A stretch of 40,714 nt of DNA from Azonexus sp. (lineage in GTDB: Bacteria; Pseudomonadota; Gammaproteobacteria; Burkholderiales; Rhodocyclaceae), in NCBI RefSeq assembly GCF_023150235.1, contig NZ_JAKLLH010000026.1, positions 1-40,714 on the forward strand, read 5' to 3'. Every line of letters begins with the position of its first letter. The first letter of the stretch is position 1. Made by a program: the position numbers and the translations under genes. The notes under the pieces are model-generated. The model ran no database searches and was not told where the DNA came from. It saw nothing but the letters and a program-made list of their open reading frames with translations. Positions 2,003 through 33,211 of this stretch are shown piece by piece.

Positions 2003-2045
2003 TTTTTGCCATTTTTCACGGTCGACCGTGAAAAAGAGCCAAAAA
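2003..2045. repeat. GGTCGACC-core palindrome, copy 1
   Basis: The invariant core CACGGTCGACCGTG is at 2017-2030. The left arm is TTTTTGCCATTTTT; the right arm is AAAAAGAGCCAAAAA, so the outer arms pair with one or two slips. It sits in a divergent intergenic region 25 bp upstream of the FecR-domain gene, a position where a transcription terminator would not normally be needed. Confidence 0.85.
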
Positions 2046-2070
2046 CCCCCGGTTCGCACGAGGTTCCAGC

Positions 2071-2523
2071 ATGCGCCTCCCTATCCTCCATCGCCTAGCC
2101 CTCCCACTCTTGCTGCTCTCGCTCCAGACAGCGCAGGCCGAGGAATGGGCTGGCACCGTCAAATTGGCCAGCGGCGAAACCCATGTCGAGCGCGACGGCC
2201 AGCGCCTGGCCCTCAAAACCGGCGACCGGGTCTATCCCGGCGACCGGTTGATCACCGGCAAGGAAGGCCGGATCGGCGTGACCCTGCGCGACGACACCCT
2301 GATTTCGACCAGCGCCAATTCCCAGCTCACGATCCGTGAATTCAGCTTCAACCCCGCCACCCACGAGGGCGGGCTGGCGGTTTCGGTCTTGCGGGGTGTG
2401 GCGGCGATGGTTTCGGGGCTGGTAGCCAAGGCCAACCCGCAGGCCATGCGGGTCAGCACGCCGACCACGACCATCGGCATCCGAGGCACCGAGTTCATTG
2501 TCGAGGTCGAAAGCGATGACTGA
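2071..2523 (+). CDS. FecR-domain periplasmic protein
   Basis: A 150-residue exported protein. Residues 1-23 form a signal peptide (basic start, LALPLLLLSL core, AQA cleavage). Residues about 28-145 match the FecR domain: a HVERDGQ/LKTGDRVYPGDRLITG segment and the terminal GIRGTEF signature at 136-142. Stand-alone FecR-domain proteins of this size occur next to OmpA-type or adenylate-cyclase-like sensory proteins; their ligand is unknown. The next gene starts inside its stop (ATGACTGA), so the two are translationally coupled. The function is not established; role as an envelope-associated scaffold or sensor is inference. Confidence 0.85.
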   Translation: MRLPILHRLALPLLLLSLQTAQAEEWAGTVKLASGETHVERDGQRLALKTGDRVYPGDRLITGKEGRIGVTLRDDTLISTSANSQLTIREFSFNPATHEGGLAVSVLRGVAAMVSGLVAKANPQAMRVSTPTTTIGIRGTEFIVEVESDD

Positions 2524-3130
2524 ACCAGCCAGCAGGCGCTTGCTCCGAGGTTTCCCCGCGATTCTCGCGATCCTCCTCCTTGCCGGCTGTTCCGCCGGTC
2601 CGCGCGAGCGCATCGTGCTCCTGCCCGACCGCAGCGGCCAGGTCGGCGCCATCATCGTCGAGCACGCGGGGAAAAGCGTCGAAGTCAAGGACGCCTACAC
2701 CGGCACCCGCCTCGCAAGCGGCAAGCTCGATCCCGAAAACCTGGGCGAGGAGGCCATCCGCCAGCGTTATCAAAGCACCATCGAGGCACTGCCGGCCTCG
2801 CCCCGACGCTACCTGCTGCATTTTGAATTCGCCAGCGACAAACTCACTGCCCAATCGCGGGCGACACTGCCCACCATTCTCGACGATCTGAAAAACTTTC
2901 CGGCACCGGAAGTGGTGGTCATCGGCCATGCCGATGCCGTCGGCGCGGCAACGGTCAATGACCGTCTCTCACTGGAGCGAGCCCAGCGCGTACGCGAACT
3001 GCTGATCGGTGCCGGCATCCCGCGCGACGCCATCCAGGTCGCCGGACGCGGCAGCCGCGAGCCGCTGGTGGTCACCCGCCCCGGCGCGCAGGAAGCACGC
3101 AATCGCCGGGTTGAAATCAAGCTGCGCTGA
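2516..3130 (+). CDS. OmpA-family lipoprotein
   Basis: A 204-residue lipoprotein. ATG at 2516 is chosen over an upstream TTG (2498) because it puts a standard lipoprotein signal at the N-terminus (hydrophobic ILAILLLAGC, acylated Cys25) and overlaps the upstream stop by 8 nt. The C-terminal half (about 95-204) is an OmpA-like peptidoglycan-binding domain: LHFEFASDKLTAQSR, VVVIGHADAVG, LSLERAQRVRELL and the closing NRRVEIKLR. It probably anchors the outer membrane to the cell wall as a partner of the FecR-domain protein. The middle segment (30-90) was not recognised. Confidence 0.88.
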   Translation: MTEPASRRLLRGFPAILAILLLAGCSAGPRERIVLLPDRSGQVGAIIVEHAGKSVEVKDAYTGTRLASGKLDPENLGEEAIRQRYQSTIEALPASPRRYLLHFEFASDKLTAQSRATLPTILDDLKNFPAPEVVVIGHADAVGAATVNDRLSLERAQRVRELLIGAGIPRDAIQVAGRGSREPLVVTRPGAQEARNRRVEIKLR

Positions 3131-3145
3131 CGGCAAGGGCAAAGG

Positions 3146-3193
3146 GCATTTCTGCCTTCATCCACGGTCGACCGTGGATAAAGGCAGAAATGC
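3146..3193. repeat. GGTCGACC-core palindrome, copy 2
   Basis: A 48-bp inverted repeat, 23 of 24 positions paired, centred at 3169/3170. The arms differ from the other copies (GCATTTCTGCCTTCATC) but the right arm carries the matching complement. It lies 15 bp after the OmpA-family lipoprotein stop, so here it could act as a terminator. The remaining sequence to the next start (3194-3475) is leader DNA. Confidence 0.92.
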
Positions 3194-3308
3194 TCGCCTA
3201 TCCTTTTCGCCGCCCCTTCCATTCGTCCCCTCGGGAAAAGCTGGCCAAGCGCTTTGATTTCAAGTAGTTGAAGCGACAAACAAGCGTTCGATCAAAAATT
3301 ACAAAAAC

Positions 3309-3324
3309 GTTGCATTCGCGCAAC
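3309..3324. promoter_or_regulatory. Inverted repeat upstream of the amino-acid ABC operon
   Basis: GTTGC-N6-GCAAC within an AT-richer stretch (3260-3350), about 150 bp before the binding-protein start. It is a candidate operator for the transporter operon. No matching regulator motif was recognised and no convincing -35/-10 pair was found between it and the start codon. Confidence 0.3.
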
Positions 3325-3475
3325 AAAGCACCTAGGGATAACCCGTATTTTGCGTCATAAGCCATGGCGGCGACGCCCCCCGCTCCCTAGAATCCGCGAC
3401 CTTCGGCGCAGAGGGTTTTCAGCTTCGGATGCATCACGCTCGCCCCGCGCCTCCATCATTCCCGGAGATCAAGAC

Positions 3476-4249
3476 ATGCGATTCAAAAGCCAACTGGCTG
3501 CCGCGCTGTTGCCGCTGGCCCTGTTGCTGGGCGGCGCCGCTGCCGAAGCGCGCGACTGGAACACGATCAAGGCCGACGGCAAGTTCCTCGCCGTCACCGA
3601 AGGTGCATTCTTTCCGTTCAATTATTTCGAAGGTTCCAAACTGACCGGCTTTGAAGTCGAAGTCGCCGAAGCCGTGGCCAAGAAGCTCGGCCTCGCCATC
3701 GAATGGCGTGTCGTACCCTTCGACGCGCAAGTCGCGTCGATCCGCCAGGACCGTTTCGACTTCGCGATTGCCTCCCACGGTTACACCGAGGAACGCGCCA
3801 GGTCGGTCGATTTCACCAACCCGCATTACTGCACCGGCGGCCAGATTGCCGCCCCCAAGGACGGCGCACTGACCGCCGCCGCGCTGGCCGGCAAGACCGT
3901 CGCCGTGCAGCTGGCGACCAGCTACGCCGACAGCGCCAAGAAAATCGCCGGGGTCAAGGAGATCAAGACCTACAAGGCCGACCCGGAAGCCTTCTCGGCG
4001 CTGAAGAGCAAGAAGGTCGACGCCTGGATTTCCGACAAGTGGCTGATCAAGGCCACCCTGGAAAAGAACGCCGACGCCGGCATCGTCGCCGGTGAGCAGG
4101 TCTTCGTCGAGCGCGTCTCGGCGATCATGCGCAAGAACAACAAGGAACTGGCCGAGCAGTGGAACCGGGGTCTGGCCGAAGTGATGAAGGATGGCACTTA
4201 CGCCACCTTGTCGCAGAAGTATTTCAAGACCGACGTTTCCTGCCACTAA
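3476..4249 (+). CDS. Polar amino-acid ABC transporter, periplasmic binding protein
   Basis: Family 3 solute-binding protein of 257 residues. ATG at 3476 has GGAG 8 nt upstream and yields a clean signal peptide (MRFKSQLAAALLPLALLLGG, cut near AEA); the open frame extends 126 bp further upstream but without a signal. Family features: FPFNYFEGSKLTGFEVEVAEAVAKKLG, the RFDFAIASHGYTEERA stretch and SKKVDAWISDKW. It is first in a four-gene cluster (12 bp to the permease, 9 bp on to the ATPase, then the porin). The exact ligand is not readable; the downstream arginase and ornithine cyclodeaminase suggest arginine or ornithine. Confidence 0.9.
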   Translation: MRFKSQLAAALLPLALLLGGAAAEARDWNTIKADGKFLAVTEGAFFPFNYFEGSKLTGFEVEVAEAVAKKLGLAIEWRVVPFDAQVASIRQDRFDFAIASHGYTEERARSVDFTNPHYCTGGQIAAPKDGALTAAALAGKTVAVQLATSYADSAKKIAGVKEIKTYKADPEAFSALKSKKVDAWISDKWLIKATLEKNADAGIVAGEQVFVERVSAIMRKNNKELAEQWNRGLAEVMKDGTYATLSQKYFKTDVSCH

Positions 4250-4261
4250 GCGAAGCGCACC

Positions 4262-5020
4262 ATGAACTGGAGCAAGCAAAATCCGGGGTGGACGATGTTC
4301 GCCGCGATGCTGGGGCTGCTCGCCTTCCTTTGGGGGCTGGCGATTCCGCTGTCGGCGGCACCGGACCCGATTGGCCCGGCGGCGCAGCAGTTCGCCGAGG
4401 GCGCCCGGATCACCGTCTGGCTGACCGTGGTTTCCGGGATCATCGGCATCGTCCTCGGCGTCCTTGCCGGAATCGGGCGGATGTCGTCGATTGCGCCGTT
4501 GCGCTGGTTGTGCGCCTTCTACGTGTGGATTTTCCGTGGCACCCCGCTGCTGCTGCAAATCCTCTTCGTCTGGCTGGCCGCCCCGCAGTTCCTGCCGGAT
4601 GCCCTGCAGCCCTCGGATTTTGCCTGCGCCATCATCGCGCTCTCGCTCAACATCGGCGCCTACAACACCGAATGCGTGCGTGCCGGCATCCTCGCGGTGC
4701 CGCATGGGCAGATCGAAGCCGCCCGGGCGCTCGGCCTGTCGCCGGTGCAGACCTTCATCGACATCATGCTGCCGCAAAGCATGCGCGTGGCCTTGCCGGC
4801 GCTGGCCAACAACCTGGCCTCGCTGGTCAAGGATTCGTCGCTGGCCTACGCGATCAGCGTGGTTGAACTGACGATGGTCGGCTACCGCGTGCAAGCCGAG
4901 AGCTACCAGCCGATTCCTGTGTTCCTGACCGTGGCGCTGATCTACCTGATCCTGACCACGGCCTTCACCACCCTGACTTCGGCGCTGGAAACCCAGCTCG
5001 ACGTCGGGCGCAAGCGCTGA
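4262..5020 (+). CDS. Polar amino-acid ABC transporter, permease
   Basis: Inner-membrane permease of the HisM/GlnP type, 252 residues. It has a hydrophobic N-terminal segment (12-32), several further membrane spans, and the conserved EAARALGLSPVQTFIDIMLPQS coupling (EAA) loop at about 157-178 that contacts the ATPase. WIFRGTPLLLQI is a typical family stretch. Only one permease gene is present, so the transporter would use a homodimer. The gene is tightly spaced between binding protein and ATPase, indicating one transcript. Confidence 0.92.
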   Translation: MNWSKQNPGWTMFAAMLGLLAFLWGLAIPLSAAPDPIGPAAQQFAEGARITVWLTVVSGIIGIVLGVLAGIGRMSSIAPLRWLCAFYVWIFRGTPLLLQILFVWLAAPQFLPDALQPSDFACAIIALSLNIGAYNTECVRAGILAVPHGQIEAARALGLSPVQTFIDIMLPQSMRVALPALANNLASLVKDSSLAYAISVVELTMVGYRVQAESYQPIPVFLTVALIYLILTTAFTTLTSALETQLDVGRKR

Positions 5021-5029
5021 GGAGCCCCC

Positions 5030-5791
5030 ATGAGCCAAGTCAAGCCTACGGCCAGGACGATCATCGCCGCCCGCGATGTGGACAAGCATTTCGGGGCCTT
5101 TCATGCGCTGAAGCAGGTCTCCGCGACCTTCCGTGAAGGCGAGGTGACCGCGATCATCGGCCCTTCCGGCTCCGGCAAGTCGACCTTCCTGCGCACGCTC
5201 AACCGCCTCGAAGCGCACGACACCGGCAGCATCGTGATCGACGGAATCGAGCTCAACGACGACCTGAAGAACCTCGACGCGATCCGCCGCGAGGTCGGAA
5301 TGGTCTTCCAGAGCTTCAACCTGTTCTCGCACCTGAGCATTCTCAAGAACATCACGCTCGCCCCGATGCGGGTGCGCAAGATGTCCGCCGCCGATGCCGA
5401 AGCCAAGGCCTTGGCCCTGCTCGACCGCGTCGGGCTCAAGGCGCATGCCCACAAGTACCCGGTGCAGTTGTCCGGCGGGCAGCAGCAGCGGGTGGCGATT
5501 GCCCGCGCGCTGGCGATGGACCCCAAGGTGCTGCTGTTCGACGAGCCGACCTCGGCGCTCGACCCGGAAATGGTCAACGAAGTGCTCGCGGTGATGCGCG
5601 AGCTGGCGCATACCGGCATCACCATGCTGGTGGTCACGCACGAGATGGGCTTCGCCCGCGAAGTCGCCGACCGCGTGATCTTCTTCGACCACGGCACGAT
5701 TCTCGAAGACTCGACGCCGCAGGATTTCTTCAACAATCCGGCGCACGAACGAGCCAAAAGCTTTTTGACGCAGGTGCGCCACGGCTTCTGA
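5030..5791 (+). CDS. Polar amino-acid ABC transporter, ATP-binding protein
   Basis: A 253-residue ATPase of the GlnQ/HisP group, cytoplasmic face of the inner membrane. Walker [10 protein letters not shown] is at 44-52, signature [16 protein letters not shown] near 147-162, Walker [15 protein letters not shown] just after, and the switch histidine in VVTHEMGFA. All catalytic residues are intact. A GAGG Shine-Dalgarno lies in the 9-bp gap after the permease. It powers import by the two preceding gene products. Confidence 0.95.
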
Positions 5792-5836
5792 GCCGGCGCC
5801 CCGCCCACCCTGATTCAATCAATTGACCGAACCATC

Positions 5837-7330: not shown

Positions 7331-7924
7331 ATGTCGCCCGAACTGATTTCCTCGACTTTTCTGCTCCTGCTGGTCCTCGACCCGCTCGGCAACGTGCCCT
7401 TCGTCCAGTCGCTGCTGCGCGACCTGCCGGCGGCCGGCAAGCGGCGGGTGATCCTGCGCGAATGCGCGATTGCCACCGCCGTCCTGCTCGCCTTCCTGTT
7501 TGCCGGCGACCGCCTGCTGGCGGTGATGCATCTCTCGGAACCGGCACTGGAAATTTCCGGCGGCCTGATCCTGTTCCTGATTGCGCTGCGCATGGTCTTC
7601 CCCTCCGCCGGCCACGGCGCGGTCGACACCCCGGCGCGCAGCGAAGCTTTTATCGTGCCGCTGGCGGTGCCGATGATCGCCGGGCCCTCGGCGCTGGCGA
7701 TGGTCCTGCTCGCCTCGCGCCAATCCGGCGACCCGTGGCTGTGGGTCGGCGCAGTGTTGGCGGCATCCACGGTCAACACCCTGATTTTGCTGATTTCCGA
7801 CCCGCTCGCCCGTCTCTTCGGCCGCTCCGGCATGGAGGCGATGGAGCGTTTGATGGGTCTGATCCTGACTACAATGGCCGTGCAGATGCTGATTTCCGGC
7901 CTCAAAGTCGCCTTTGCCGCTTAA
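7331..7924 (+). CDS. MarC family integral membrane protein
   Basis: A 197-residue inner-membrane protein with about six hydrophobic segments. The N-terminal LVLDPLGNVPFVQSLL and the central IVPLAVPMIAGPSALAMVLL stretches are diagnostic of the MarC/YhgN (UPF0056) family. Transport function is suspected but substrate unknown; the old antibiotic-resistance link of MarC is not supported in general. It lies 81 bp after the porin and 10 bp before arginase, suggesting cotranscription with arginase. Confidence 0.88.
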   Translation: MSPELISSTFLLLLVLDPLGNVPFVQSLLRDLPAAGKRRVILRECAIATAVLLAFLFAGDRLLAVMHLSEPALEISGGLILFLIALRMVFPSAGHGAVDTPARSEAFIVPLAVPMIAGPSALAMVLLASRQSGDPWLWVGAVLAASTVNTLILLISDPLARLFGRSGMEAMERLMGLILTTMAVQMLISGLKVAFAA

Positions 7925-8893: not shown

Positions 8894-8939
8894 GGTTTTT
8901 GCCGATATTTACGGTCGACCGTGAATATCGGCAAAAACC
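8894..8939. repeat. GGTCGACC-core palindrome, copy 3
   Basis: A 46-bp inverted repeat with one mismatch, centred at 8916/8917. Arms read GGTTTTTGCCGATATTTA and the complement TGAATATCGGCAAAAACC. It lies 23 bp after the arginase stop and ends in runs of T (left) and A (right), so an RNA hairpin could form in either direction. Confidence 0.93.
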
Positions 8940-9986: not shown

Positions 9987-10003
9987 CATTTTCAGGCTAT
10001 TTT

Positions 10004-10017
10004 CACGGTCGACCGTG
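10004..10017. repeat. GGTCGACC-core palindrome, copy 4 (core only)
   Basis: The 14-bp core CACGGTCGACCGTG is intact, but the flanks (left CTATTTT, right CGATTCGGG) no longer pair. It lies 17 bp after a conventional terminator. Probably a decayed member of the family. Confidence 0.7.
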
Positions 10018-10211
10018 CGATTCGGGATTTTTCCCCGCGCGACAAGCGCCGGCATGGTGCCGGTCGAATCTTGCCGGCCAGGTCGCGCACACCGGGCCGC
10101 TGAGCAACACCGGTACTTGCCTGGCTGCGGTTGTGCCGGCGACCTTCCGGTTTATGGCTTACGGTCAGTGGCTCGCGCAGCCCCCGCGCTAACCTCGCGC
10201 CAACCCCGCAC

Positions 10212-11934: not shown

Positions 11935-12978
11935 ATGTCCCGCATCAAAGCCATCGCCCCCCTCGGCCAGCAGATCTGGCTCGACAACCTCTCCCGCCAC
12001 CTGCTCGAATCGGGCGAACTCGCCCGCTGGATAGCCGAAGATGCCATTGCCGGCGTCACCTCGAACCCGGCGATCTTCTTCAATGCGATCAAGAACGACG
12101 CGCACTACCAGGGCGCGCTGACCAGCCTGCGCCAGAGCGCGGCCGAGGCCAGCCCCGAACAGCGCTTCGAGGCGCTGGTCCTGCCCGACGTGCGCCGCGC
12201 CTGCCAGTTGCTGCGCCCGGTGTACGACGCCAGCCAGGGCCAGGCCGGCTTCGTCAGCTTCGAAGTTTCGCCGACGCTGGCGCACGATGCCGCCGCCACC
12301 CTCGCCGCCGCCCGCCGCCTGTGGGCCGAGATCGGCGAGCCAAACGCGATGATCAAGATTCCGGCGACCCCGGCCGGGATGCAGGCGATCAGCGGCGCGA
12401 TTGCCGACGGGATCAACGTCAACGTGACGCTGATCTTTTCCCCGGCGCAACTCGCCTGCGTCCAGGCTGCCTACCGCGCCGGCATCGAGCAGCGTTTTGC
12501 CGCCGGTTTGCCGGTCGACCGTATCGCCTCGGTCGCCAGCGTCTTCATCAGCCGTCTCGACAGCCTGCTCGACCCGCAACTGCCGGCCGAGCTGCAGGGC
12601 AAGACCGCGCTCGCCTTTGCTGCCAACGAGTACGCCCGCTGGCAGCAGCAGCCGGCGCTGCCCGGCGGCGCCCGGCCGCAACTGCTGCTGTGGGCCTCGA
12701 CCTCCAGCAAAAATCCGGCTTACCGCGACGTGCTCTACGTCGAGCAGTTGATCGGCACCGGCACGGTGAACACCGTCCCCGACGCAACGCTGGCCGCCTT
12801 CCGCGACCACGGCGAAGCCGCCCTCACCCTGCCGCAGCAGGCCGCCGTCGCGCCGGCCCAGCTCGCCGCGCTGCAGGAACGCGGGATCGACCTCGAACAG
12901 GTTGGCGCCGAACTGCTCGCCGCCGGCCTCAAGCAATTTGACGAAGCCTTCGCCAAGCTGCTCGAACTGGTCGCGTAA
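11935..12978 (+). CDS. tal: Transaldolase
   Basis: Pentose phosphate pathway enzyme, cytoplasmic, 347 residues. It resembles the longer transaldolases of actinobacteria/cyanobacteria and some betaproteobacteria rather than E. coli TalB. Features: [14 protein letters not shown] at 14-27, GVTSNPAIF at 40-48, the Schiff-base Lys141 in [10 protein letters not shown], and [25 protein letters not shown] towards the C-terminus. ATG at 11935 fits the family start; the frame is open 78 bp further upstream without homology. No strong Shine-Dalgarno. Confidence 0.93.
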
Positions 12979-13022
12979 TCCACCCGCCAGCCGGCGGCTG
13001 GCGCCCCCCTTTCCGCCCCCGA

Positions 13023-13069
13023 GCCACGGTCAACAGCGAAAATCGGCTTTTTTGCGCGTCGACCGTGGC
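13023..13069. repeat. GGTCGACC-core palindrome, copy 5 (rearranged)
   Basis: GCCACGGTC (13023-13031) and its complement GACCGTGGC (13061-13069) are separated by 29 bp that include GCGAAAA and TTTTTTGCGC. In all other copies the two core halves are fused and the variable arms lie outside; here arm-like sequence lies between the halves. It sits 44 bp after the transaldolase stop, the usual place for this family. Confidence 0.6.
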
Positions 13070-13138
13070 ATCCATCACCGTAGCGCCGCCCCGGACAGAG
13101 AAGCTGGGAGCGCTCCCCTTTTTTTGCCAGGAGACAGC

Positions 13139-14642: not shown

Positions 14643-14686
14643 ATTTTTGCCCGCGATCACGGTCGACCGTGATCGCGCTGCTTTTT
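14643..14686 (+). repeat. GGTCGACC-core palindrome, copy 6 (one-sided tail)
   Basis: A perfect 26-bp palindrome (14652-14677, arms CGCGATCA) starting 61 bp after the aldehyde dehydrogenase stop. The outer left arm is TTTTTGCC, but the right outer arm is CTGCTTTTT instead of GGCAAAAA. It thus has a U-tract on the plus strand and resembles a one-directional terminator. The remainder to 14803 is leader DNA without a recognisable gene. Confidence 0.9.
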
Positions 14687-20423: not shown

Positions 20424-20469
20424 GGTTTTTGCCGATTTTCACGGTCGACCGTGAAAATCGGCAAAAACC
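20424..20469. repeat. GGTCGACC-core palindrome, copy 7 (perfect)
   Basis: A perfect 46-bp palindrome centred at 20446/20447, arms GGTTTTTGCCGATTTT and complement, 5 bp after the aminotransferase stop. It lies between that gene and the convergent short zor-linked gene. The rest of the gap to 20678 was translated in the minus frames and showed no recognisable protein. Confidence 0.95.
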
Positions 20470-24298: not shown

Positions 24299-24342
24299 GT
24301 TTTTGCCTTTTTTCACGGTCGACCGTGAAAAAAGGCAAAAAC
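24299..24342. repeat. GGTCGACC-core palindrome, copy 8 (perfect)
   Basis: A perfect 44-bp palindrome centred at 24320/24321 with arms GTTTTTGCCTTTTTT and complement. It lies in the divergent gap between rlmB and the HDOD gene, about 106 bp upstream of rlmB, where no gene ends. This position argues against a purely terminator role. Confidence 0.95.
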
Positions 24343-25352: not shown

Positions 25353-27809
25353 TCAGCGCCGGGCTCGCGCCTTCCGCTTGCCTGCGGCTTTTGCCGCCTT
25401 GCCGACCTTGGCCTTCTTGGCCTTGCCGCCCTTCGCCCGATTTTCTCCCTCTTTTCGCGGTGAGCTGGCGGCAGAGGATGGGCGCTTTTCCCGGGAAGGC
25501 AGCGGGCTCAGGGCAGGCGCTTCCTCCACACCCCGGATTGCCGCCCTGACACCGGTGCGCGGGCGCCGGCCGGATACGGCTTCGGCATCGACGGTCGTGG
25601 AACGCGGTGAGCGCCCGCCTCTACCGCCGCTCCCGCTCTCGGCGAGCACAAACTCGATCTTGTTGCTTTCGAGATCGACACGCACCAGGCGCACGCGCAC
25701 GCGATCCCCGAGACGGTAGCGCTGCCCTGTACGCTCTCCCAGCATCTGGTGGCGGACATTGTCGAACTGGAAATAATCGGCACCCAGTTCCGAAACATGC
25801 ACCAGCCCCTCGATGTAGACGGCATCAAGAGCCACGAAAATACCGAAGGAGGTTACCGCCGAAATGCTGCCGTCAAATTCCTCGCCAACGCGCTCCTTCA
25901 TGTAGAAGCACTTCAGCCAGTTCTCGACATCGCGGGTCGCCTCGTCGGCCCGCCTTTCGGTGGCCGAGCATTGCAGGCCGATATCGTCCCACTGTCCATC
26001 GGGCCGGTATTTCTCGCCCGCCAATACCGCCTTGATCGCACGATGCACCAGCAGGTCCGGGTAACGCCGGATCGGTGAGGTAAAGTGCGTGTAATGCTCG
26101 TAGGCCAGGCCAAAGTGGCCCACGTTGTCCGGACTGTAAACCGCCTGCTGCAAAGAACGCAGCATCACCGTTTGCAAGAGGGCAAAGTCCGGGCGCGGCT
26201 TGATCTGTTCAAGCAAGGCCGCGTAATCCCCGGCCGTCGGCGCCTCGCCTCCGGCCAGTTGCAGACCGAACTCGCCAAGGAAAGAACGCAGGTTCTTCAG
26301 TTTTTCCTCGGAAGGCACGGCATGAATGCGGTACAGACAAGGCTGCTCATGCAAGGCAAGAAAGTCGGAAGCGCAGACATTGGCCGCCAGCATGCACTCC
26401 TCAATGATCCGGTGCGCATCGTTACGCACCACCGGCACGATGTTTTCGATCTTGCCCTGGGCATTGAAGAGCATTTGCGTTTCGGTGGTCTCGAAATCGA
26501 TCGCGCCGCGCTTGCCACGCGCTTTATGCAGTACCTGGTAAAGCTTGTAGAGATTTTCCAGTTGCGGCTGCAAGGCTTGATGCACCGCCTCCCCGGGCTT
26601 GACCTCGCCGGACAGCCAGGACCAGACCTGGTTGTAGGTCAGACGGGCGTGCGAACGGAAAACTGCCGGGTAAAAACGGTATTTTCCAATTTTGCCGGTG
26701 CTGCCGATTTCGACATCGCACACCATGGCCACGCGCTCGACATCCGGGTTCAGGGAGCAGATCCCATTCGACAACCTCTCCGGCAGCATCGGAATCACCC
26801 GGCGCGGGAAATAGACGGAGTTGCCGCGTTCGCGGGCCTCGCGATCAAGCGCCATGCCCGGACGGACATAATGAGAAACGTCGGCAATCGCCACCACCAG
26901 GCGCCAGCCGCGCCCACGCTTTTCGCAATACACCGCGTCGTCGAAATCGCGTGCCGTTTCGCCATCGATGGTCACCAGCGGCAAATCGCGCAAATCCTCG
27001 CGCCCCTTGAGGTCCATCTTGCGCACCTTGGCCGGCATTTTGGCATTCTCGGCCTCGGCCATCGGCGAAAACTGGAAGGGCAGATCGTGCTTGCGCAAGG
27101 CGATCTCGATTTCCATGCCCGGATCGGCATAATTGCCGATGATCTCGGCCACGCGGCCAATCGGCTGTGAATACTTGTTCGGCTGTTCGACGATATCGAC
27201 CATTACCACCTGACCGGACTGCACTTTCAAGCTGCTTTCACCGAAGGGCGGAATCAGGATGTCCTGAGCGATGCGCCGATTCTCGGGAATCACGAAGGTC
27301 ACGCCATGATCGACGAAAACCCGGCCGACAATGCGCCGATTGGCCCTTTCGGTCACCTCGACGATACTGCCTTCGCTCCGCCCCTTGCGGTCCACGCCGA
27401 TCACCCGCACCAGTACCCGGTCACCATGCAAGGCACGAGCCATCTGCCGCTGGTCGAGAAAAATATCCTCATCGCCCTGATCCGGAACCAGAAAGCCGTA
27501 GCCATCGGGATGTCCCTGGATGCGGCCGGCAATCAGGCTGGCTTTTTCAGGGACCAGATAGGCTCCCTTGCGGTTGCGCATCACCTGGCCTTCACGCTCC
27601 ATCGCGCCCAAACGCCGCTGGAACATTTCCCGCTCATCGACACCGACATCGAGCAATTGGACGATTTCATCGACCAGCAGAGGCCGCGCCTCTTTTTCCA
27701 TGATTTGGAGAATGTATTCCCGCGACGGCAGCGGAAACTCGTAACGCGCCAACTCACGATCCAGGAACGGATCGGCACGGCGGATTTTGCTTAATTTTTT
27801 TCTTGACAT
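25353..27809 (-). CDS. rnr: Ribonuclease R
   Basis: Processive 3'-5' exoribonuclease for structured RNA, 818 residues, full length. Domain order: N-terminal helix-turn-helix-like region (about 25-90), cold-shock domains (about 90-245), RNB catalytic domain from about 265 with TIDGETARDFDDAVY (280-294) carrying the metal-binding aspartates, S1 domain (about 640-725, GSISAVTSFGIFVAL), and a Lys/Arg/Ala-rich tail (about 765-818). The ATG at 27809 is overlapped by the -35 box of the divergent tRNA promoter. The usual partner rlmB is displaced by 1.2 kb. Confidence 0.97.
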   Translation of the reverse strand: MSRKKLSKIRRADPFLDRELARYEFPLPSREYILQIMEKEARPLLVDEIVQLLDVGVDEREMFQRRLGAMEREGQVMRNRKGAYLVPEKASLIAGRIQGHPDGYGFLVPDQGDEDIFLDQRQMARALHGDRVLVRVIGVDRKGRSEGSIVEVTERANRRIVGRVFVDHGVTFVIPENRRIAQDILIPPFGESSLKVQSGQVVMVDIVEQPNKYSQPIGRVAEIIGNYADPGMEIEIALRKHDLPFQFSPMAEAENAKMPAKVRKMDLKGREDLRDLPLVTIDGETARDFDDAVYCEKRGRGWRLVVAIADVSHYVRPGMALDREARERGNSVYFPRRVIPMLPERLSNGICSLNPDVERVAMVCDVEIGSTGKIGKYRFYPAVFRSHARLTYNQVWSWLSGEVKPGEAVHQALQPQLENLYKLYQVLHKARGKRGAIDFETTETQMLFNAQGKIENIVPVVRNDAHRIIEECMLAANVCASDFLALHEQPCLYRIHAVPSEEKLKNLRSFLGEFGLQLAGGEAPTAGDYAALLEQIKPRPDFALLQTVMLRSLQQAVYSPDNVGHFGLAYEHYTHFTSPIRRYPDLLVHRAIKAVLAGEKYRPDGQWDDIGLQCSATERRADEATRDVENWLKCFYMKERVGEEFDGSISAVTSFGIFVALDAVYIEGLVHVSELGADYFQFDNVRHQMLGERTGQRYRLGDRVRVRLVRVDLESNKIEFVLAESGSGGRGGRSPRSTTVDAEAVSGRRPRTGVRAAIRGVEEAPALSPLPSREKRPSSAASSPRKEGENRAKGGKAKKAKVGKAAKAAGKRKARARR

Positions 27810-27830
27810 GGCCTCATTCTAGCCTATAAT
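27803..27830 (+). promoter_or_regulatory. Consensus sigma-70 promoter of the tRNA-Leu genes
   Basis: TTGACA (27803-27808), 16-bp spacer, TATAAT (27825-27830): both hexamers match the consensus at all six positions. Expected start near 27837, 13 nt before the first tRNA. The -35 overlaps the rnr start codon (27807-27809) on the other strand. Confidence 0.9.
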
Positions 27831-27849
27831 GGCGGCTCTTCGCACCTGA

Positions 27850-27934
<85 letters not shown>

Positions 27935-28081
27935 GGCAACGCAAGTTGCCGCGAAGAAAGCTGGATTGTCGCACAGCGTGGATTGCAGAAATGTAAAACC
28001 GCAGCGGGCAAACCGGAAAAATGCAGTTGCAGAGGGTCGGACGATGTGGACGCAAGTCCTGCAATGTCGGCCTCGGTACCT

Positions 28082-28166
<85 letters not shown>

Positions 28167-28255: not shown

Positions 28256-28289
28256 AAAAAAAGGCCACCCGGTCGATAACCGAGTGGCC
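28256..28289 (-). terminator. Terminator of the prpE transcript
   Basis: Read on the minus strand: GGCCAC/GTGGCC outer stem with inner CGGT/ACCG and a CGATA-type loop, then seven T. It lies 28 bp after the prpE stop. Confidence 0.88.
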
Positions 28290-28316
28290 AGTGTCGGCGG
28301 AAGAGACGGCGACGGC

Positions 28317-30209
28317 TTAACCGGCCAGCAGACTCTTGATGTTTTCCAGCGTGGACGGATCCTCGATGGTGGTCAGATCACCCGGATCGCGGCCTTCGGC
28401 CAGCGCCTGCAGCGAACGGCGCAGCATCTTGCCGGAGCGGGTCTTGGGCAGGCCGATCACGAAGTGCACGCGGGCCGGGCGGGCAATTGCGCCCAAAATC
28501 CCGTCGACCGTGGCAAACACTTCCTTCTCCAGCGCCTTGACCAGTTCCGGCGTGGCGATCTTCGCCGCATCCTTGACCACCGCGAAGGCCATCGGCATCT
28601 GGCCTTTCAGCTTGTCCTCGACACCGACGACGGCGACTTCGGCAATCGCGGCGTGGTTCTGGATCGCTTCCTCGATTTCACGGGTCCCCAGGCGGTGGCC
28701 GGCAACGTTGATCACGTCGTCGGTACGGCCGAGGATGGTGAAGTAACCGTCGTCATCCTTGATCGCCCAGTCGTAGGACGAGTAGACCAGCGGATCCTTG
28801 AACAGCGTGAAGTAGGTGCTGACAAAGCGGTCGTCCTGGCCCCAGACCGTGGACAGGCAGCCGGGCGGCAGCGGCGGCACGACAGCGGCGATGCCCTTCT
28901 CGTTGGCGCCGCACTCGGAGCCGTCCTCGCGGAAGATCTTGAGGTTGTAGCCATAAACCGGGAAGGACGGCGAACCGAACTTGATCGGGGTTTTCTCGAC
29001 GCCGTGCAGCGCGGCCAGCATCGGCCAGCCGGTTTCGGTCTGCCAGTAGTTGTCGATCACCGGCTTGCCCAGTTCGTTCTGGAACCACTCGTGCGTCGGC
29101 TGATCCAGCGGCTCGCCGGCCATGAAGATGTGCTTCAAGGACGACAGGTCATACTTGTGCATGTACGCCGGGTCCTGCTTCTTGAGCACGCGGGCGGCGG
29201 TCGGCGCCGAGAACATCACGTTGACCTTGTACTTCTCGACGATCTGCCACCAGATGCCCGGATCGGGACGCAGCGGCGTGCCTTCGTACATGATGGTCGC
29301 CATGCCGGCGATCAGCGGGCCGTAGATGATGTAAGAGTGACCGACGACCCAGCCGATGTCCGAGGTGGAGAAGTAGGTCTCGCCTTCGCCGCCGCAGTAG
29401 ATGTGCTTCATCGACGAGGCCAGGGCCACGGCGTAACCGCCGGTGTCGCGCTGCACGCCCTTGGGCTTGCCGGTGGTACCGGAGGTGTAGAGGATGTAGG
29501 ACGGCTCGGAGGATTCCAGCCATTCGCAGGCGACCTTGGCATCGAGATGCTGTTCGCGCAAGGTGGCGTAATCGACGTCGCGGCCGTCGACCTTGTTGAA
29601 GCCTTGATCCAGGCCACGGTCGACCATCAGCACCTTGGTCGGCTTATGTTCGGCAATCTCGATCGCTTCGTCGAGCAGGTGCTTGTAAGGCACGGCCTTG
29701 CCGCCGCGCATGCCGGCGTCGGAGGAAACAATCAGGGTCGGCTTGGCATCGTCGATGCGGGTGGCCAGCGAGCCGGAAGCGAAACCGCCGAAAACGACGG
29801 AGTGCACGGCGCCGATGCGGGCGGCGGCGAACATCGCGAACGCGGCCTGCGGAATCATCGGCATGTAGATCAGGACGCGGTCGCCTTTCTTGACGCCGAG
29901 GCTACGGTAGATCGCGGCCATGCGTTCGACTTCGCGCTGCAGCTCGGCGAAGGAATACACCTTCTCCTCGTCGGTCTCGGTCGAGATGTAGATCAACGCG
30001 CGGTCGTTCGGGCGCTTCGCCGCATGACGGTCGATCGCGTTGTGGCACAAGTTGGTCTTGCCGCCGACGAACCACTTCGCGAACGGCGGGCGGGAGAAGT
30101 CGCACACCTGGGTGAACGGTTCCTGCCAGTCGATCAACTGCGCCTGCTCGGTCCAGAATTCATTCGGTTTCTCGATCGAATACTGGTGAAACTCCTTGTA
30201 TGTCGTCAT
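28317..30209 (-). CDS. prpE: Propionyl-CoA synthetase
   Basis: AMP-forming acyl-CoA synthetase, propionate + CoA + ATP to propionyl-CoA, 630 residues. ATP-binding loop YTSGTTGKPKG, SDIGWVVGHSYI, DNYWQTETGWP, GRTDDVINVAGHRLGTREIEEA, and catalytic lysine in KTRSGKMLRR. FPVYGYNLKIF, LPPGCLSTVWGQDDRFVSTYF and the ending GRDPGDLTTIEDPSTLENI match PrpE rather than acetyl-CoA synthetase. ATG at 30209 has AGAGGG 9 nt upstream. It lies 105 bp downstream of the acrylyl-CoA reductase-like gene on the same strand. Confidence 0.93.
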   Translation of the reverse strand: MTTYKEFHQYSIEKPNEFWTEQAQLIDWQEPFTQVCDFSRPPFAKWFVGGKTNLCHNAIDRHAAKRPNDRALIYISTETDEEKVYSFAELQREVERMAAIYRSLGVKKGDRVLIYMPMIPQAAFAMFAAARIGAVHSVVFGGFASGSLATRIDDAKPTLIVSSDAGMRGGKAVPYKHLLDEAIEIAEHKPTKVLMVDRGLDQGFNKVDGRDVDYATLREQHLDAKVACEWLESSEPSYILYTSGTTGKPKGVQRDTGGYAVALASSMKHIYCGGEGETYFSTSDIGWVVGHSYIIYGPLIAGMATIMYEGTPLRPDPGIWWQIVEKYKVNVMFSAPTAARVLKKQDPAYMHKYDLSSLKHIFMAGEPLDQPTHEWFQNELGKPVIDNYWQTETGWPMLAALHGVEKTPIKFGSPSFPVYGYNLKIFREDGSECGANEKGIAAVVPPLPPGCLSTVWGQDDRFVSTYFTLFKDPLVYSSYDWAIKDDDGYFTILGRTDDVINVAGHRLGTREIEEAIQNHAAIAEVAVVGVEDKLKGQMPMAFAVVKDAAKIATPELVKALEKEVFATVDGILGAIARPARVHFVIGLPKTRSGKMLRRSLQALAEGRDPGDLTTIEDPSTLENIKSLLAG

Positions 30210-30314
30210 GAAGACGTCCCTCTCTACTGACAAATTTCCTGCACAAACGAAATGGGCGGCCTGTAATAGTTATCTGCCGCCCTCCGGAAAAAAGGACCGA
30301 GACGCGACCGGGGC

Positions 30315-31310
30315 TCAGCCGCCGGCCAGCTCGACCACGACACGCCCCTTGGCCTTGCCGGCGAGGTACTCGTCGAACAGGACCGGAAGCGCGTCGAAGG
30401 CAACCTTGCGCGACATCCGCTCGAGGTGCGGCGGCCGCAGATCGCCGGCCAGGCGTTGCCAGACGCCGTGGCGATAGGGTTCGCGGATATAGCCCGAATC
30501 GACCCCGAGAAGCGACACGCCGCGCAGGATGAAAGGCATCACCGTGGTGTTCAGCAAATGGCTGGCGGCCAGGCCGATGCTGGCGATGGTGCCGCCCTGC
30601 TGCATCGTGCTGGCGATCCAGGCCAGGGTGTCGCCGCCGACGTTATCGACGGCACCGGCCCAGCGCGCCTTGTCGAGCGGGCGGATCTTGGCCAAGTCGA
30701 GTTCCTGGCGGAGCAGGATTTCGGCGGCGCCCAGGCTCTTCAGGTAATCGGCTTCCTCGGCCTTGCCGGTCAGCGCGACGACGTGGTAGCCGCGCTTGGC
30801 CAGCATGTCGATGGCCAGGCTGCCGACGCCGCCGGTCGAACCGGTGACGATCACCGGCCCCTTGGCCGGGGTCAGGCCGTTTTCTTCCATGCGGACGATG
30901 CCGAGCGCGGCGGTGAAGCCGGCGGTGCCGAGCGCCATCGCGTCGTACAGGCTGAGACCGGCCGGCAGCGGCACCACCCAGTCGCCGGGCACGCGGGCGT
31001 ACTCGGCATAACCGCCGTGATGCGCGACGCCGATGTCGAAGCTGGTGGCGATCACCGCATCGCCGGCCTGGAAGCGCGGATCATCGCTGGCGACGACGAC
31101 GCCGGAAAGATCGATCCCGCCGACACAGGGGAAGCGGCGGATGATCTTGCCGGCGCCGGTGGCGGCCAGCGCATCCTTGTAGTTGATGCTCGAATAGGCG
31201 ACACGTATGGTCACGTTGCCGGCGTCGAGCTGGCTCTCGTTCATCTCGACGAAGCGGTTGCCGACCTTGCCGTCGCGCTCCTCGATCAACAGTGCCTTGA
31301 AGGAATCCAT
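30315..31310 (-). CDS. acuI: Acrylyl-CoA reductase-type MDR dehydrogenase (YhdH/AcuI family)
   Basis: A 331-residue NADPH-dependent medium-chain reductase of the YhdH/AcuI group. Features: SSINYKDALAATGAGKI, FPCVGGIDLSGVV, nucleotide-binding VIVTGSTGGVGSLAIDMLAKRG, VDNVGGDTL and PFILRGVSLLGVDS. No zinc-ligand cysteines, as usual here. AcuI reduces acrylyl-CoA to propionyl-CoA; with prpE next, the operon likely feeds propionyl-CoA metabolism (3-hydroxypropionate, acrylate or propionate). The symbol is based on family and neighbour, not proven specificity. ATG at 31310 follows AGGAGAG. Confidence 0.85.
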   Translation of the reverse strand: MDSFKALLIEERDGKVGNRFVEMNESQLDAGNVTIRVAYSSINYKDALAATGAGKIIRRFPCVGGIDLSGVVVASDDPRFQAGDAVIATSFDIGVAHHGGYAEYARVPGDWVVPLPAGLSLYDAMALGTAGFTAALGIVRMEENGLTPAKGPVIVTGSTGGVGSLAIDMLAKRGYHVVALTGKAEEADYLKSLGAAEILLRQELDLAKIRPLDKARWAGAVDNVGGDTLAWIASTMQQGGTIASIGLAASHLLNTTVMPFILRGVSLLGVDSGYIREPYRHGVWQRLAGDLRPPHLERMSRKVAFDALPVLFDEYLAGKAKGRVVVELAGG

Positions 31311-31342
31311 CGTGCTATCTCTCCTGTGAAGTTAAAATTGTA

Positions 31343-31363
31343 TTCATAATTACAGATTATGAA
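31343..31363. promoter_or_regulatory. Perfect palindrome upstream of acuI-prpE
   Basis: TTCATAAT-TACAG-ATTATGAA: 8-bp perfect arms, 5-bp spacer, in an AT-rich island 33 bp before the acuI start and about 80 bp before the divergent NlpC/P60 gene. It has the form and position of a repressor or activator site; no matching regulator gene is in the window. Confidence 0.65.
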
Positions 31364-31444
31364 CAATAGTCCGCATGGCGAACGTCCGTGAATATTACGA
31401 CAACGTGTTTACAGCGGCAGCGAATTGCACTACATTCTCCGGCT

Positions 31445-31963
31445 ATGCGTAAAGTTCTCACTTCCGTAACCCGTTCCCTCGCGGTCGCTGTCGCCCTCTT
31501 TGCCGGGGTAGCCAGCGTCTCCGTCGCCGAACCGGTCCGCAAGCCGGACGAGCCGCTTTCCTTCCTCGAACGCTATACCAATGCTGCACAGGATGTGATC
31601 CTGCAAGGACTCAAGCTGGTCGGCATCCGCTACCGCTGGGGTGGCAACAACGAGGATTCCGGTCTCGATTGCAGCGGTTTCGTCCGTCTGGTGTTCAAGG
31701 ACAGCATCGGCGCCCTGCTCCCCCGTACCGCCAAGGAAATGAGCGAAGTCGGCCAGCAGATCGATGCCAGCCAGCTCAAGCCGGGCGATCTCGTCTTCTT
31801 CAACACCATGCGCCGCACCTTCTCGCACGTCGGGATCTACCTCGGCGACAACTACTTCATGCACGCTCCGCGCGCCGGCGCCGAAGTCCGCGTCGAGAGC
31901 ATGGAAAGCAGCTACTGGGTCAAACGCTACAACGGCGCCCGCCGCATTCTTGAAGGCAGCTGA
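31445..31963 (+). CDS. NlpC/P60 cell-wall hydrolase
   Basis: A 172-residue exported peptidoglycan endopeptidase. Signal peptide about 1-28 (VAVALFAGVASVSVA). The NlpC/P60 domain (about 48-170) has the catalytic Cys76 (LDCSGFVR), His128 (FSHVGIYLG) and third polar residue His140 (FMHAPRAG). Length and layout match small Spr/MepS-like D,L-endopeptidases; there is no lipobox. ATG at 31445 gives the proper signal. A terminator follows 24 bp after the stop. Confidence 0.93.
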   Translation: MRKVLTSVTRSLAVAVALFAGVASVSVAEPVRKPDEPLSFLERYTNAAQDVILQGLKLVGIRYRWGGNNEDSGLDCSGFVRLVFKDSIGALLPRTAKEMSEVGQQIDASQLKPGDLVFFNTMRRTFSHVGIYLGDNYFMHAPRAGAEVRVESMESSYWVKRYNGARRILEGS

Positions 31964-31986
31964 GCCTTCAGAGGTCAATCGACAGC

Positions 31987-32011
31987 AAAGCGGCAGATGC
32001 CGCTTTTTTTT
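31987..32011 (+). terminator. Terminator of the NlpC/P60 gene
   Basis: AAAGCGGC-AGAT-GCCGCTTT followed by more T (eight in a row). A typical Rho-independent terminator. Confidence 0.92.
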
Positions 32012-32024
32012 ACGCCCATACCTC

Positions 32025-32043
32025 AATAACGTTTCTCATTTAC
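32025..32043. promoter_or_regulatory. Possible Fur box before the iron-binding protein gene
   Basis: A 19-bp stretch AATAACG...CTCATTTAC agrees with the classical Fur box at 12 of 19 positions by eye and lies about 70 bp before a ferric-type binding protein start. Suggestive only. Confidence 0.3.
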
Positions 32044-32114
32044 AAATTTTTTCACGCCCGCTACACTCGCCGCCGGATTGCAACAACAACTCACAACGAC
32101 ATCTGGAGAAACCC

Positions 32115-33131
32115 ATGCGTAGCAAACTTGGCCTGGCCGTTGCCGGCCTGCTGCTGATCGGCGGCGCTGCCACCGCTGAGGAAAAGGTGCTGAACCTCTA
32201 CTCGGCCCGCCACTATCAAACCGACGAAGCGCTGTACAGCAACTTCACCAAGCAGACCGGGATCAAGATCAATCGCATCGAGGGCAAGGAAGACGAGCTG
32301 CTCGAACGCCTGAAGAACGAAGGCGCCAACAGCCCGGCCGATGTCTTCCTCACCGTCGACGCCGCCCGCCTGGCCAAGGCCCACGAACTCGGCCTGTTCG
32401 CCCCGGTCCAGTCCAAGCTGCTCGAAAGCCGCATCCCGGCGCACCTGCGCACCGACGACTGGTTCTCCTTCTCGACCCGCGCCCGCGTGATCGTCTACAA
32501 CAAGGGCTCGGTCAAGGCCGGGGATGTGCAGAACTACGCCGACCTGGCCAACCCCAAGCTCAAGGGCAAGTTCTGCTCGCGCTCGGGTTCGCACCCCTAC
32601 AACCTGTCGCTGATGGCTTCGGTGATTTCGCACGAAGGCGAAGCCAAGGCCGAGCAGTGGGCCAAGGGCATGGTCGCCAACTTCGCACGCGCGCCGAAGG
32701 GCGGCGATACCGACCAGATCAAGGCGGTCTCGGCCGGCGAATGCGGCGTTGCGGTCTCCAACACCTACTACGTCGCCCGCCTGCTGCGCTCGACCAAGCC
32801 GGAAGAGCAGAAGATGATGGAAAAGGTTGGCATCGTCTGGCCCGACCAGAACGGCAGCGGCGCCCACATCAACGTTTCCGGCGGCGGCATGCTGAAAACC
32901 GCGCCGAACAAGGAAGCGGCGGTCAAGTTCCTCGAATACCTCGCCTCCGACGAAGCCCAGCGTTACTTTGCCGACGGCAACAACGAATGGCCGGCGGTCT
33001 CCGGGATCAAGATTTCCAACCCCGGTCTGGAAGCAATGGGCAAGTTCAAGGCCGACAGCCTGCCGGTCAAGAACCTGGCGATGTATGCGACCAAGGCGCA
33101 GATCCTGTTCGACCGCGCCGGCTTCAAGTAA
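32115..33131 (+). CDS. Fe(III) ABC transporter substrate-binding protein (FbpA/FutA type)
   Basis: A 338-residue periplasmic binding protein with a signal peptide (1-21, GLAVAGLLLIGGAATA). VLNLYSARHYQTDEALYSNFTKQTGIKIN and ADVFLTVDAARLAKAHELGLF are family stretches; the paired tyrosines in VSNTYYVARLL and an early tyrosine (Tyr/His of SARHY) are probable ferric ligands, as in FutA/FbpA. GGAG precedes the ATG. No permease or ATPase follows; the partner genes must be elsewhere. Confidence 0.9.
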   Translation: MRSKLGLAVAGLLLIGGAATAEEKVLNLYSARHYQTDEALYSNFTKQTGIKINRIEGKEDELLERLKNEGANSPADVFLTVDAARLAKAHELGLFAPVQSKLLESRIPAHLRTDDWFSFSTRARVIVYNKGSVKAGDVQNYADLANPKLKGKFCSRSGSHPYNLSLMASVISHEGEAKAEQWAKGMVANFARAPKGGDTDQIKAVSAGECGVAVSNTYYVARLLRSTKPEEQKMMEKVGIVWPDQNGSGAHINVSGGGMLKTAPNKEAAVKFLEYLASDEAQRYFADGNNEWPAVSGIKISNPGLEAMGKFKADSLPVKNLAMYATKAQILFDRAGFK

Positions 33132-33175
33132 GCCCCCCTGCCCCGCCGCCCCGGCAAGCAGCATCTTTGCCTTTT

Positions 33176-33211
33176 TTGCCCATTGTCACGGTCGACCGTG
33201 ACAATGGGCAA
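33176..33211. repeat. GGTCGACC-core palindrome, copy 9 (perfect)
   Basis: A perfect 36-bp palindrome (TTGCCCATTGTCACGGTC and complement), preceded by CTTTTT and followed by TTTTC, 44 bp after the iron-binding protein stop. Its variable arm CCATTG is unlike other copies but paired. The remaining gap to bamD (33212-33343) contains no recognisable gene or terminator. Confidence 0.95.

What the first reader, a model, noticed from the sequence alone, without database searches (positions are those of the whole stretch)
2003..33211. Family of intergenic palindromes with an invariant GGTCGACC core and covarying arms
Nine intergenic elements (2003, 3146, 8894, 10004, 13023, 14643, 20424, 24299, 33176) contain CACGGTCGACCGTG or its halves (copy 3 has one core substitution). 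Arms between the core and the outer TTTTTGCC/GGCAAAAA differ in sequence (TTCATC, GATATT, CGCGAT, GATTTT, TTTTTT, CATTGT) yet stay paired, so pairing is kept while sequence drifts, and perfect palindromes reach 44-46 bp. An ordinary terminator does not need a conserved core. Seven lie after gene ends; two (2003, 24299) lie in divergent gaps where nothing ends. Options: bidirectional terminators with a protein-binding core, a REP-like element moved by a transposase, or a chromosome-organising site.
Basis: partly seen in the sequence, partly recalled or inferred. Interest (0 to 1): 0.78.

Follow-up and report, generated by a model that had tools for sequence, protein, structure and literature searches.

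The report
Probable DNA-uptake signal sequences in Azonexus
The palindromes are back-to-back pairs of a short directional DNA tag scattered about 1,300 times through this genome, which looks like the "take up your own DNA" tag so far known only from two other bacterial families.

Summary
The nine palindromes are real, but the palindrome is not the unit. The unit is directional: CACGGTCRAC followed by A/T boxes about one and two helical turns 3' of it. It occurs 1302 times in the own genome (control 37), equally on both strands, mostly inside genes. In one-sided copies the far A/T box is present in 63 of 88, against 3 of 88 on the other side. The palindromes are two units overlapping through GTCGAC, mainly just after gene ends; well-paired arms hold for a minority. 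In the genus (Azonexus by contig match), 40 of 76 genomes hold 391-1785 copies of the general form and 28 hold 9-60; 213 genomes of 67 other genera of the family stay near background. The bases before CGGT differ between genomes ("dialects"). Copies are spaced more evenly than random, without replication polarity, and conserved beyond control words. Best reading: a DNA uptake signal sequence for natural transformation, USS-like in layout, in a third bacterial family. Not shown: that Azonexus is competent, that the tag promotes uptake, or what the receptor is.

The parts
2002..2045 (.). two overlapping inverted units (cores 2017-2026 + and 2021-2030 -), divergent gap
   Evidence: in G204 both halves have the T variant TACGGTCGAC
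3148..3191 (.). two overlapping inverted units (3163-3172 +, 3167-3176 -), 39 bp after a stop codon
   Evidence: in G204 the place holds one one-sided unit, GTTGACCGTG with a T box
7768..7777 (+). single unit CACGGTCAAC inside gene 7331-7924, A/T boxes to the right
8895..8926 (-). unit with exact core 8914-8923 (-); the opposing half is a variant (TACGGTCGAC at 8910); palindrome whose arms changed in step between G000 and G204
9989..10032 (.). two overlapping inverted units (10004-10013 +, 10008-10017 -), convergent gap, unpaired arms
13022..13070 (.). two separate inverted units (13025-13034 +, 13058-13067 -)
14643..14686 (.). two overlapping inverted units (14658-14667 +, 14662-14671 -); terminator-like hairpin with T tail by simple scan
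20425..20468 (.). two overlapping inverted units (20440-20449 +, 20444-20453 -), perfect palindrome, arms changed in step in G204
24299..24342 (.). two overlapping inverted units (24314-24323 +, 24318-24327 -), divergent gap
28503..28512 (-). single unit inside gene 28317-30209
29615..29624 (+). single core inside gene 28317-30209, without A/T boxes
33172..33215 (.). two overlapping inverted units (33187-33196 +, 33191-33200 -), convergent gap; terminator-like by simple scan
12514..12521 (-). variant unit (TACGGTCGAC plus A/T box) inside gene 11935-12978
   Evidence: C to T at this place is the commonest one-base variant that keeps the A/T box, 33 of 62
35387..35394 (+). variant unit (TACGGTCGAC plus A/T box), weak

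Best explanation
The element is a DNA uptake signal sequence: a self-recognition tag for natural transformation. The unit reads 5'-(T)TCACGGTCRAC, then a weak A/T box about 8 bp and a strong A/T box about 17 bp 3' of the core. Proposed mechanism (inferred): a minor type IV pilin or other surface receptor binds the core on extracellular DNA; the A/T boxes, one and two helical turns away, let the duplex bend or kink as the pilus pulls it in; ComEC passes one strand; recombination replaces the homologous gene. Tagged fragments enter more often, so tags spread and persist over the genome, in genes and between them. Shown here: the directional unit, its number, layout, spread, genus restriction, dialects and conservation. 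Inferred: uptake function, receptor, drive.
For: 1302 exact GTYGACCGTG, 662/640 by strand, backward control 37. Truly one-sided copies: far A/T box in 63 of 88 (G000) and 62 of 87 (G204), 53 of 76 and 46 of 66 in those wholly inside genes, against 3 of 88 and 3 of 87 on the mirror side and 67 of 2760 for anagram words. 95 of 135 (G000) and 85 of 136 (G204) places coding; spacing CV 0.77 and 0.81; counts per 5 kb under-dispersed, variance 1.08 vs mean 1.64 in 165 bins. No polarity against GC skew: 166/160, or 111/105 without palindromes. 21 of 32 core 10-mers (25 places) identical in G204 vs 47 of 174 anagrams (Fisher p 5e-5) and 25% of all 10-mers; the palindrome at 3146 is a single one-sided unit in G204. 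Dialects before CGGT: CA in G000/G204, TG in G050/G031/G008, C or G then A in G030, mainly AG or GA in G038. 40 of 76 genus genomes hold 391-1785 copies, 213 genomes of other genera near background. ComEC in 51 of 51 genomes at least 90% complete, in G000 as an 809-aa protein; a minor pilin of Pfam ComP_DUS in G000 and in 51 of 51, beside PilW and PilY1. Published uptake tags share the features: two AT-rich motifs 3' of the USS core (passages of PMC1626085); hundreds to thousands of copies, inverted repeats, dialects (introduction of PMC12616744); overlapping dyad pairs in Simonsiella (passage of PMC3630211).
Against: No uptake or transformation data: listings for Dechloromonas (10 of 624 papers shown) and Azonexus (1 paper) with competence gave no report of competence in the genus. 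ComEC and ComP_DUS are also present in motif-poor genomes, so no receptor is singled out. ComEC looks split or partial in some motif-rich genomes (G002, G008) as well as in motif-poor ones (G034, G043, G017). Density is about 4- to 5-fold higher between genes than in genes. The tag differs in sequence from USS and DUS. Conservation was tested on only 25 places. The shortage in low-GC stretches may partly reflect the G+C-rich core.
Confidence: 0.8

Rival explanations
1. Binding sites of an abundant, asymmetric, genus-specific nucleoid or regulatory protein that bends DNA; the A/T boxes are minor-groove contacts and the dialects follow changes in its DNA-reading surface.
For: Fixed core plus 10-bp phased A/T boxes, with A and T used about equally at positions 19-21; palindromes enriched after gene ends.
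Against: Most places lie in genes, with little orientation bias to the gene: same/opposite 46/43 in G000 and 33/46 in G204 (binomial p 0.83 and 0.18); no replication polarity; 28 of 76 congeners have only 9-60 copies; palindromes are rare in divergent gaps, 2 of 28 (G000) and 2 of 23 (G204) of those with both A/T boxes.
Confidence: 0.12
2. A HIP1-like iterated word kept by methylation or repair of the GTCGAC palindrome, without a role in uptake (HIP1 is recalled, not looked up).
For: The core contains the palindrome GTCGAC; copy number is high and genus-restricted.
Against: The unit is directional and includes GTTGAC, which is not palindromic; it goes with an A/T box on one side.
Confidence: 0.04
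3. Intrinsic bidirectional terminators: the palindromes work as RNA hairpins.
For: In G000, 13 of the 22 intergenic palindromes with both A/T boxes lie in convergent gaps, which are 30 of 169 gaps of 60 bp or more (Fisher p 8e-5); a minority has near-perfect arms; two window copies pass a terminator scan, which itself finds little more than shuffles overall; arms changed in step at two orthologous sites.
Against: Most copies are single and in genes; the outer box is A-rich nearly as often as T-rich in G000; most palindromes have arms that are not well paired (30 of 40 below 11 of 15). Co-option of some copies is likely and compatible with the best explanation.
Confidence: 0.02
4. REP-like elements spread by a Y1 (RAYT) transposase.
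For: G000 has two Y1 proteins; Y1 is commoner in motif-rich than in motif-poor genomes, 22 of 40 vs 8 of 28 (p 0.047).
Against: Y1 is absent from 18 of 40 motif-rich genomes, including G204 (1 contig, 243 places by the A/T-boxed palindrome pattern) and G050; the unit is directional and sits in genes.
Confidence: 0.02

Closest known systems
Uptake signal sequence (USS) of Pasteurellaceae, Hin type AAGTGCGGT and Apl type ACAAGCGGT
   Same: Core of about 9-10 bp with two A/T-rich segments on the 3' side; hundreds to thousands of copies; dialects; inverted pairs. Some Azonexus dialects contain GCGGT in the same orientation to the A/T boxes (TGCGGTCGAC in G050, TAGCGGTCGAC in G038).
   Different: Core continues as CGGTCRAC; the window's own dialect has ACGGT instead of GCGGT; A/T boxes lie about 5 bp further out than in Hin-USS (my estimate from a recalled Hin consensus); the host is a betaproteobacterium; palindromes form by direct overlap.
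DNA uptake sequence (DUS) of Neisseriaceae, GCCGTCTGAA, receptor ComP
   Same: Abundance, dialects, inverted and overlapping dyad pairs; the host has a minor pilin matching Pfam ComP_DUS.
   Different: Unrelated core; DUS has no flanking motifs (PMC1626085 passage).
REP / BIME elements
   Same: Intergenic palindromes in hundreds of copies after genes (general knowledge).
   Different: Directional half-units in genes; no strict dependence on Y1 transposase.

Membership tests
Uptake sequence (general kind) | Over-represented directional word, hundreds to thousands of copies, both strands | tested here: met
   1302 vs 37 control, 662/640 by strand
Uptake sequence (general kind) | Present in coding and non-coding DNA, spread evenly | tested here: met
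   95 of 135 and 85 of 136 places coding; spacing CV 0.77 and 0.81
Uptake sequence (general kind) | Dialects between related species | tested here: met
   samples of 7 genomes, bases before CGGT differ; G008 rests on 8 copies, G038 is mixed
Uptake sequence (general kind) | Host has type IV pilus and competence genes | tested here: inconclusive
   ComEC 51 of 51 and ComP_DUS 51 of 51 genomes at least 90% complete, motif-poor ones included; comEA, dprA and pilQ not tested
Uptake sequence (general kind) | Raises uptake of DNA that carries it | not testable with these tools
   needs an experiment
Pasteurellaceae USS | Core AAGTGCGGT or ACAAGCGGT | tested here: not met
   core is NNCGGTCRAC; GCGGT shared only in some dialects
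Pasteurellaceae USS | Two A/T-rich segments 3' of the core | tested here: met
   strong box in 63 of 88 and 62 of 87 one-sided copies; inner box weak, AT 0.48-0.62 against about 0.35 background
Neisseriaceae DUS | GCCGTCTGAA-type core with CTG | tested here: not met
   not among the top over-represented words of G000, G204, G038, G050, G030 or G031 samples
REP moved by RAYT | Y1 transposase in genomes with many copies | tested here: not met
   present in 22 of 40 motif-rich genomes only
Intrinsic terminator | Hairpin followed by a T run | tested here: not met
   right outer box T-rich in 14 and A-rich in 13 of 29 palindromes in G000; 11 and 7 of 26 in G204; a subset may qualify
Chi / KOPS-type polar site | Orientation follows replication direction | tested here: not met
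   166 vs 160 against GC skew, 111 vs 105 without palindromes; GC skew stands in for replication direction

The most novel reading that the evidence does not exclude
A third self-DNA uptake system exists in Rhodocyclaceae, and its tag is read by a receptor homologous to the still unproven Pasteurellaceae USS receptor: both tags share GCGGT with A/T segments on the same side, so one recognition mode would span beta- and gammaproteobacteria. The shared 5-mer alone could be chance (roughly 1 in 10 by my rough count over dialects, not computed in a call).
Probability: 0.2. Interest if true: 0.93.

Novelty: new variant of a known kind. Interest (0 to 1): 0.87.

Why it matters
[quoted passage not shown] A 2026 terminator survey reports such motifs in those two families (PMC13020248, passages seen). 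A third family with many species, several dialects, motif-poor sister species and intermediates would give an independent replicate. It would test whether uptake tags arise by receptor bias and drive or by selection for self recognition, and whether A/T boxes one and two turns away are a general need of DNA entry. It also suggests that environmental bacteria of this genus are, or recently were, naturally transformable, which is testable and useful for genetics.

Tried and rejected
Rejected: REP/RAYT as a general explanation; polar site; a pure terminator role; an Rfam family (only two tRNAs reach the gathering score in the window); the same family in other genera (14-mer in 150 genomes; general form in 213); a palindromic substitute in a 220 kb sample of G207. 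Tried without result: a prepilin or competence gene that separates motif-rich from motif-poor genomes; none of those looked at did. The 18-base scan of genome contigs gave 27 stretches: 9 named Azonexus, 2 Dechloromonas, 2 other Rhodocyclaceae or Rugosibacter, and 14 elsewhere, 8 of these Pseudomonas; I did not follow the 14. Paper searches gave capped listings: Azonexus palindromes (20 of 4998 shown), uptake sequences with Rhodocyclales, Dechloromonas or Azonexus (25 of 468), related wording (25 of 39, 19 of 19, none), the core words (15 of 87), competence in Dechloromonas (10 of 624) and in Azonexus (1 of 1). Nothing listed describes this motif; apart from the papers named in the report I saw listings only. 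PMC9045156 (passages) only cites a review on competence.

Own slips: the filter meant to drop partial palindromes tested the wrong three bases; the full palindromes had been removed first, (its unit count) they had not. One search repeats the test correctly and is the one used; the anagram control is not affected. I first took the G204 site at 3146 for a decayed palindrome; one search shows an exact one-sided unit there. My gene calls come from a small dicodon script, not from annotation.
Full report
OBSERVATION. The 14-mer CACGGTCGACCGTG is exact at seven of the nine places named and has one substitution at 8910. GGTCGACC occurs 10 times in the window against 0.97 expected. In the whole 3.42 Mb genome the 14-mer occurs 187 times, its backward control 0 times. 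Same-genus genome G204 has 164. Of the 60 genus genomes, G000 has 187, G030 17, G018 11, and the other 57 have 0-2. So the family is real.

THE ARMS. Over 29 G000 copies (symmetrised) positions 1-7 are fixed, 8-12 are A/T-rich, 13-16 G/C-rich, 18-21 A/T at 0.88-1.00 with A and T both common, and 23-26 G/C-rich; the G204 sample of 26 copies shows the same pattern, a little weaker. Constant class with free letters explains much of the apparent pairing. With arms swapped between copies as control, 10 of 40 palindromes in G000 reach 11 of 15 arm pairs (3.4 expected) and 6 reach 14 (0.16 expected); in G204 7 of 33 reach 11 (1.6 expected) and 3 reach 14 (0.00 expected). So a minority truly has paired arms. 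Against G204 (82.6% identical over the aligned blocks) I looked at eight orthologous gaps; 33176 was not covered. Five keep a two-sided site while the flanks have diverged (2003 as the T variant, 8894, 10004, 20424, 24299). At 3146 G204 has a single one-sided unit, GTTGACCGTG with a T box. At 14643 none is left; at 13023, where G204 carries about 2.5 kb of other DNA, no unit is found. At 8894 and 20424 both arms changed in step.

THE UNIT IS DIRECTIONAL. An unbiased word count in 431 kb of G000 puts GTCGACCGTG (121 vs 3.1 expected) and GTTGACCGTG (43 vs 1.0) among the strongest 10-mers; G204 gives 114 vs 2.7 and 48 vs 1.0; they are not in the top lists of 220 kb of G207, whose genome has 40 against 26 in the control. 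GTTGAC cannot be palindromic. Read the other way the unit is CACGGTCRAC. After removing full and partial palindromes (88 copies left of 163 in G000, 87 of 161 in G204) the four bases at -19 to -16 are all A/T in 63 of 88 and 62 of 87, the mirror side in 3 of 88 and 3 of 87; for copies wholly inside genes it is 53 of 76 and 46 of 66, mirror 2 and 0. For 2760 anagram words it is 67. A weaker A/T box lies at -9 to -7 (AT 0.48-0.62) and a short one on the other side of the core at +10 to +14. In the window there are 20 units at 13 places: seven overlapping inverted pairs, one pair with a variant half, one separated inverted pair at 13025/13058, and three singles in genes.

NUMBER AND SPREAD. GTYGACCGTG occurs 1302 times in G000 (662 and 640 by strand, control 37) and 1243 times in G204 (control 39). 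In the samples 95 of 135 (G000) and 85 of 136 (G204) places are in genes; same/opposite orientation to the gene is 46/43 and 33/46 (p 0.83 and 0.18); density is 0.25 and 0.24 per kb in genes and 0.92 and 1.19 between; spacing CV is 0.77 and 0.81, where 1 is random. Counts per 5 kb are under-dispersed (mean 1.64, variance 1.08 over 165 bins). 5 of 5 bins of GC 0.52-0.56 have none, though the one bin below 0.52 has one and the G+C-rich core may add to this; one low-GC 20 kb stretch with a single site, L025, is a chemotaxis cluster. Orientation does not follow GC skew: 166 vs 160, 111 vs 105 without 14-bp palindromes. Of 32 core 10-mers (25 places, overlapping pairs counted twice) in 79.5 kb aligned with G204, 21 are identical there, against 47 of 174 anagrams (p 5e-5) and 25% of all 10-mers. 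Palindromic copies prefer gene ends: of 28 G000 palindromes with both A/T boxes, 13 lie in convergent gaps, 7 in tandem gaps, 2 in divergent gaps and 6 in genes, while gaps of 60 bp or more are 30 convergent, 96 tandem and 43 divergent; G204 gives 11, 6, 2 and 4 of 23.

TAXON AND DIALECTS. The form CGGTCRAC-N15-WWWW occurs 1148 times in G000 (control 23); 213 genomes of 67 other genera of the family stay near background, the highest 27 against 5 (G090). In 76 genus genomes 40 have 391-1785, 8 have 88-159, and 28 have 9-60; controls are at most 31, and some of the 28 still lie several times above their own control, for example G219 with 60 against 11. The bases before CGGT differ: CA in G000 and G204, TG in G050, G031 and G008 (8 copies only), C or G then A in G030, mainly AG or GA in G038. 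The A/T boxes keep their places in all of these, though the outer box is part of the search pattern there.

MACHINERY. G000 has ComEC (809 aa) and a minor-pilin cluster with a ComP_DUS pilin (39.8 bits, cut-off 27.3), a GspH-family (FimT-like, recalled name) pilin, PilW and PilY1. ComEC and ComP_DUS are found in 51 of 51 genus genomes at least 90% complete and at most 5% contaminated (71 and 70 of all 76), motif-poor ones included; ComP_DUS is in 0 of 14 control genomes. They show that the route is possible and do not identify the receptor. ComEC looks split or partial in motif-poor G034, G043 and G017 but also in motif-rich G002 and G008, so its state does not track the motif.

WHAT IT MOST LIKELY IS. 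An uptake signal sequence. Directional core, A/T segments on its 3' side, about a thousand copies on both strands in and between genes, even spacing, dialects, overlapping inverted pairs after genes and a genus-limited, patchy spread are together the signature of USS and DUS. Sources: introduction of PMC12616744 read; passages of PMC1626085, PMC3630211 and PMC13020248. It is not a member of USS or DUS by core. The uptake step, the receptor and the drive are inferred. The main rival, a chromosomal binding protein, fits the phased boxes but less well the even spread in genes without clear orientation and the near-absence in 28 of 76 congeners. The REP/RAYT rival has one result for it, Y1 transposase in 22 of 40 motif-rich against 8 of 28 motif-poor genomes (p 0.047), but 18 motif-rich genomes lack Y1.

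NOVELTY. PMC12616744 (October 2025) states that only Neisseriaceae and Pasteurellaceae are known to use such motifs. My searches (capped listings) showed no description in Rhodocyclaceae; the library lacks most subscription papers and preprints.

Noticed in passing
G045, G216, G221, G005 and other genomes with 88-159 copies: Intermediate copy numbers; G045 is about as close to the window as G204 in the one gene compared (92% vs 91%) and may be decaying after loss of uptake specificity.
   Followed up: partly
G034:C1:1959178-1959913, G043:C1, G017:C8, G002:C33, G008:C10/C17: ComEC appears split or partial in these genomes, with no clear link to motif richness.
   Followed up: partly
L025 (G000:C1:20001-40000): A chemotaxis cluster of GC 0.52 in a genome whose sample averages 0.63 holds one unit in 20 kb; looks acquired.
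   Followed up: partly
window 27803-28163: Two tRNA genes (27850-27931, 28082-28163) behind a perfect TTGACA-16-TATAAT match at 27803.
   Followed up: no
G000 sample, intergenic: AAACATGTTT occurs 5 times in the 431 kb sample, all intergenic by my gene calls; possibly a regulator operator.
   Followed up: no
window 8895-8938 and 20425-20468: Both arms of the palindrome changed in step between G000 and G204: selection for a hairpin or template-switch correction of quasipalindromes.
   Followed up: partly
L088, L091, L093, L094, L097, L098, L101, L103: Eight Pseudomonas records each hold one exact CACGGTCGACCGTGAAAA; not examined, may be one shared gene.
   Followed up: no
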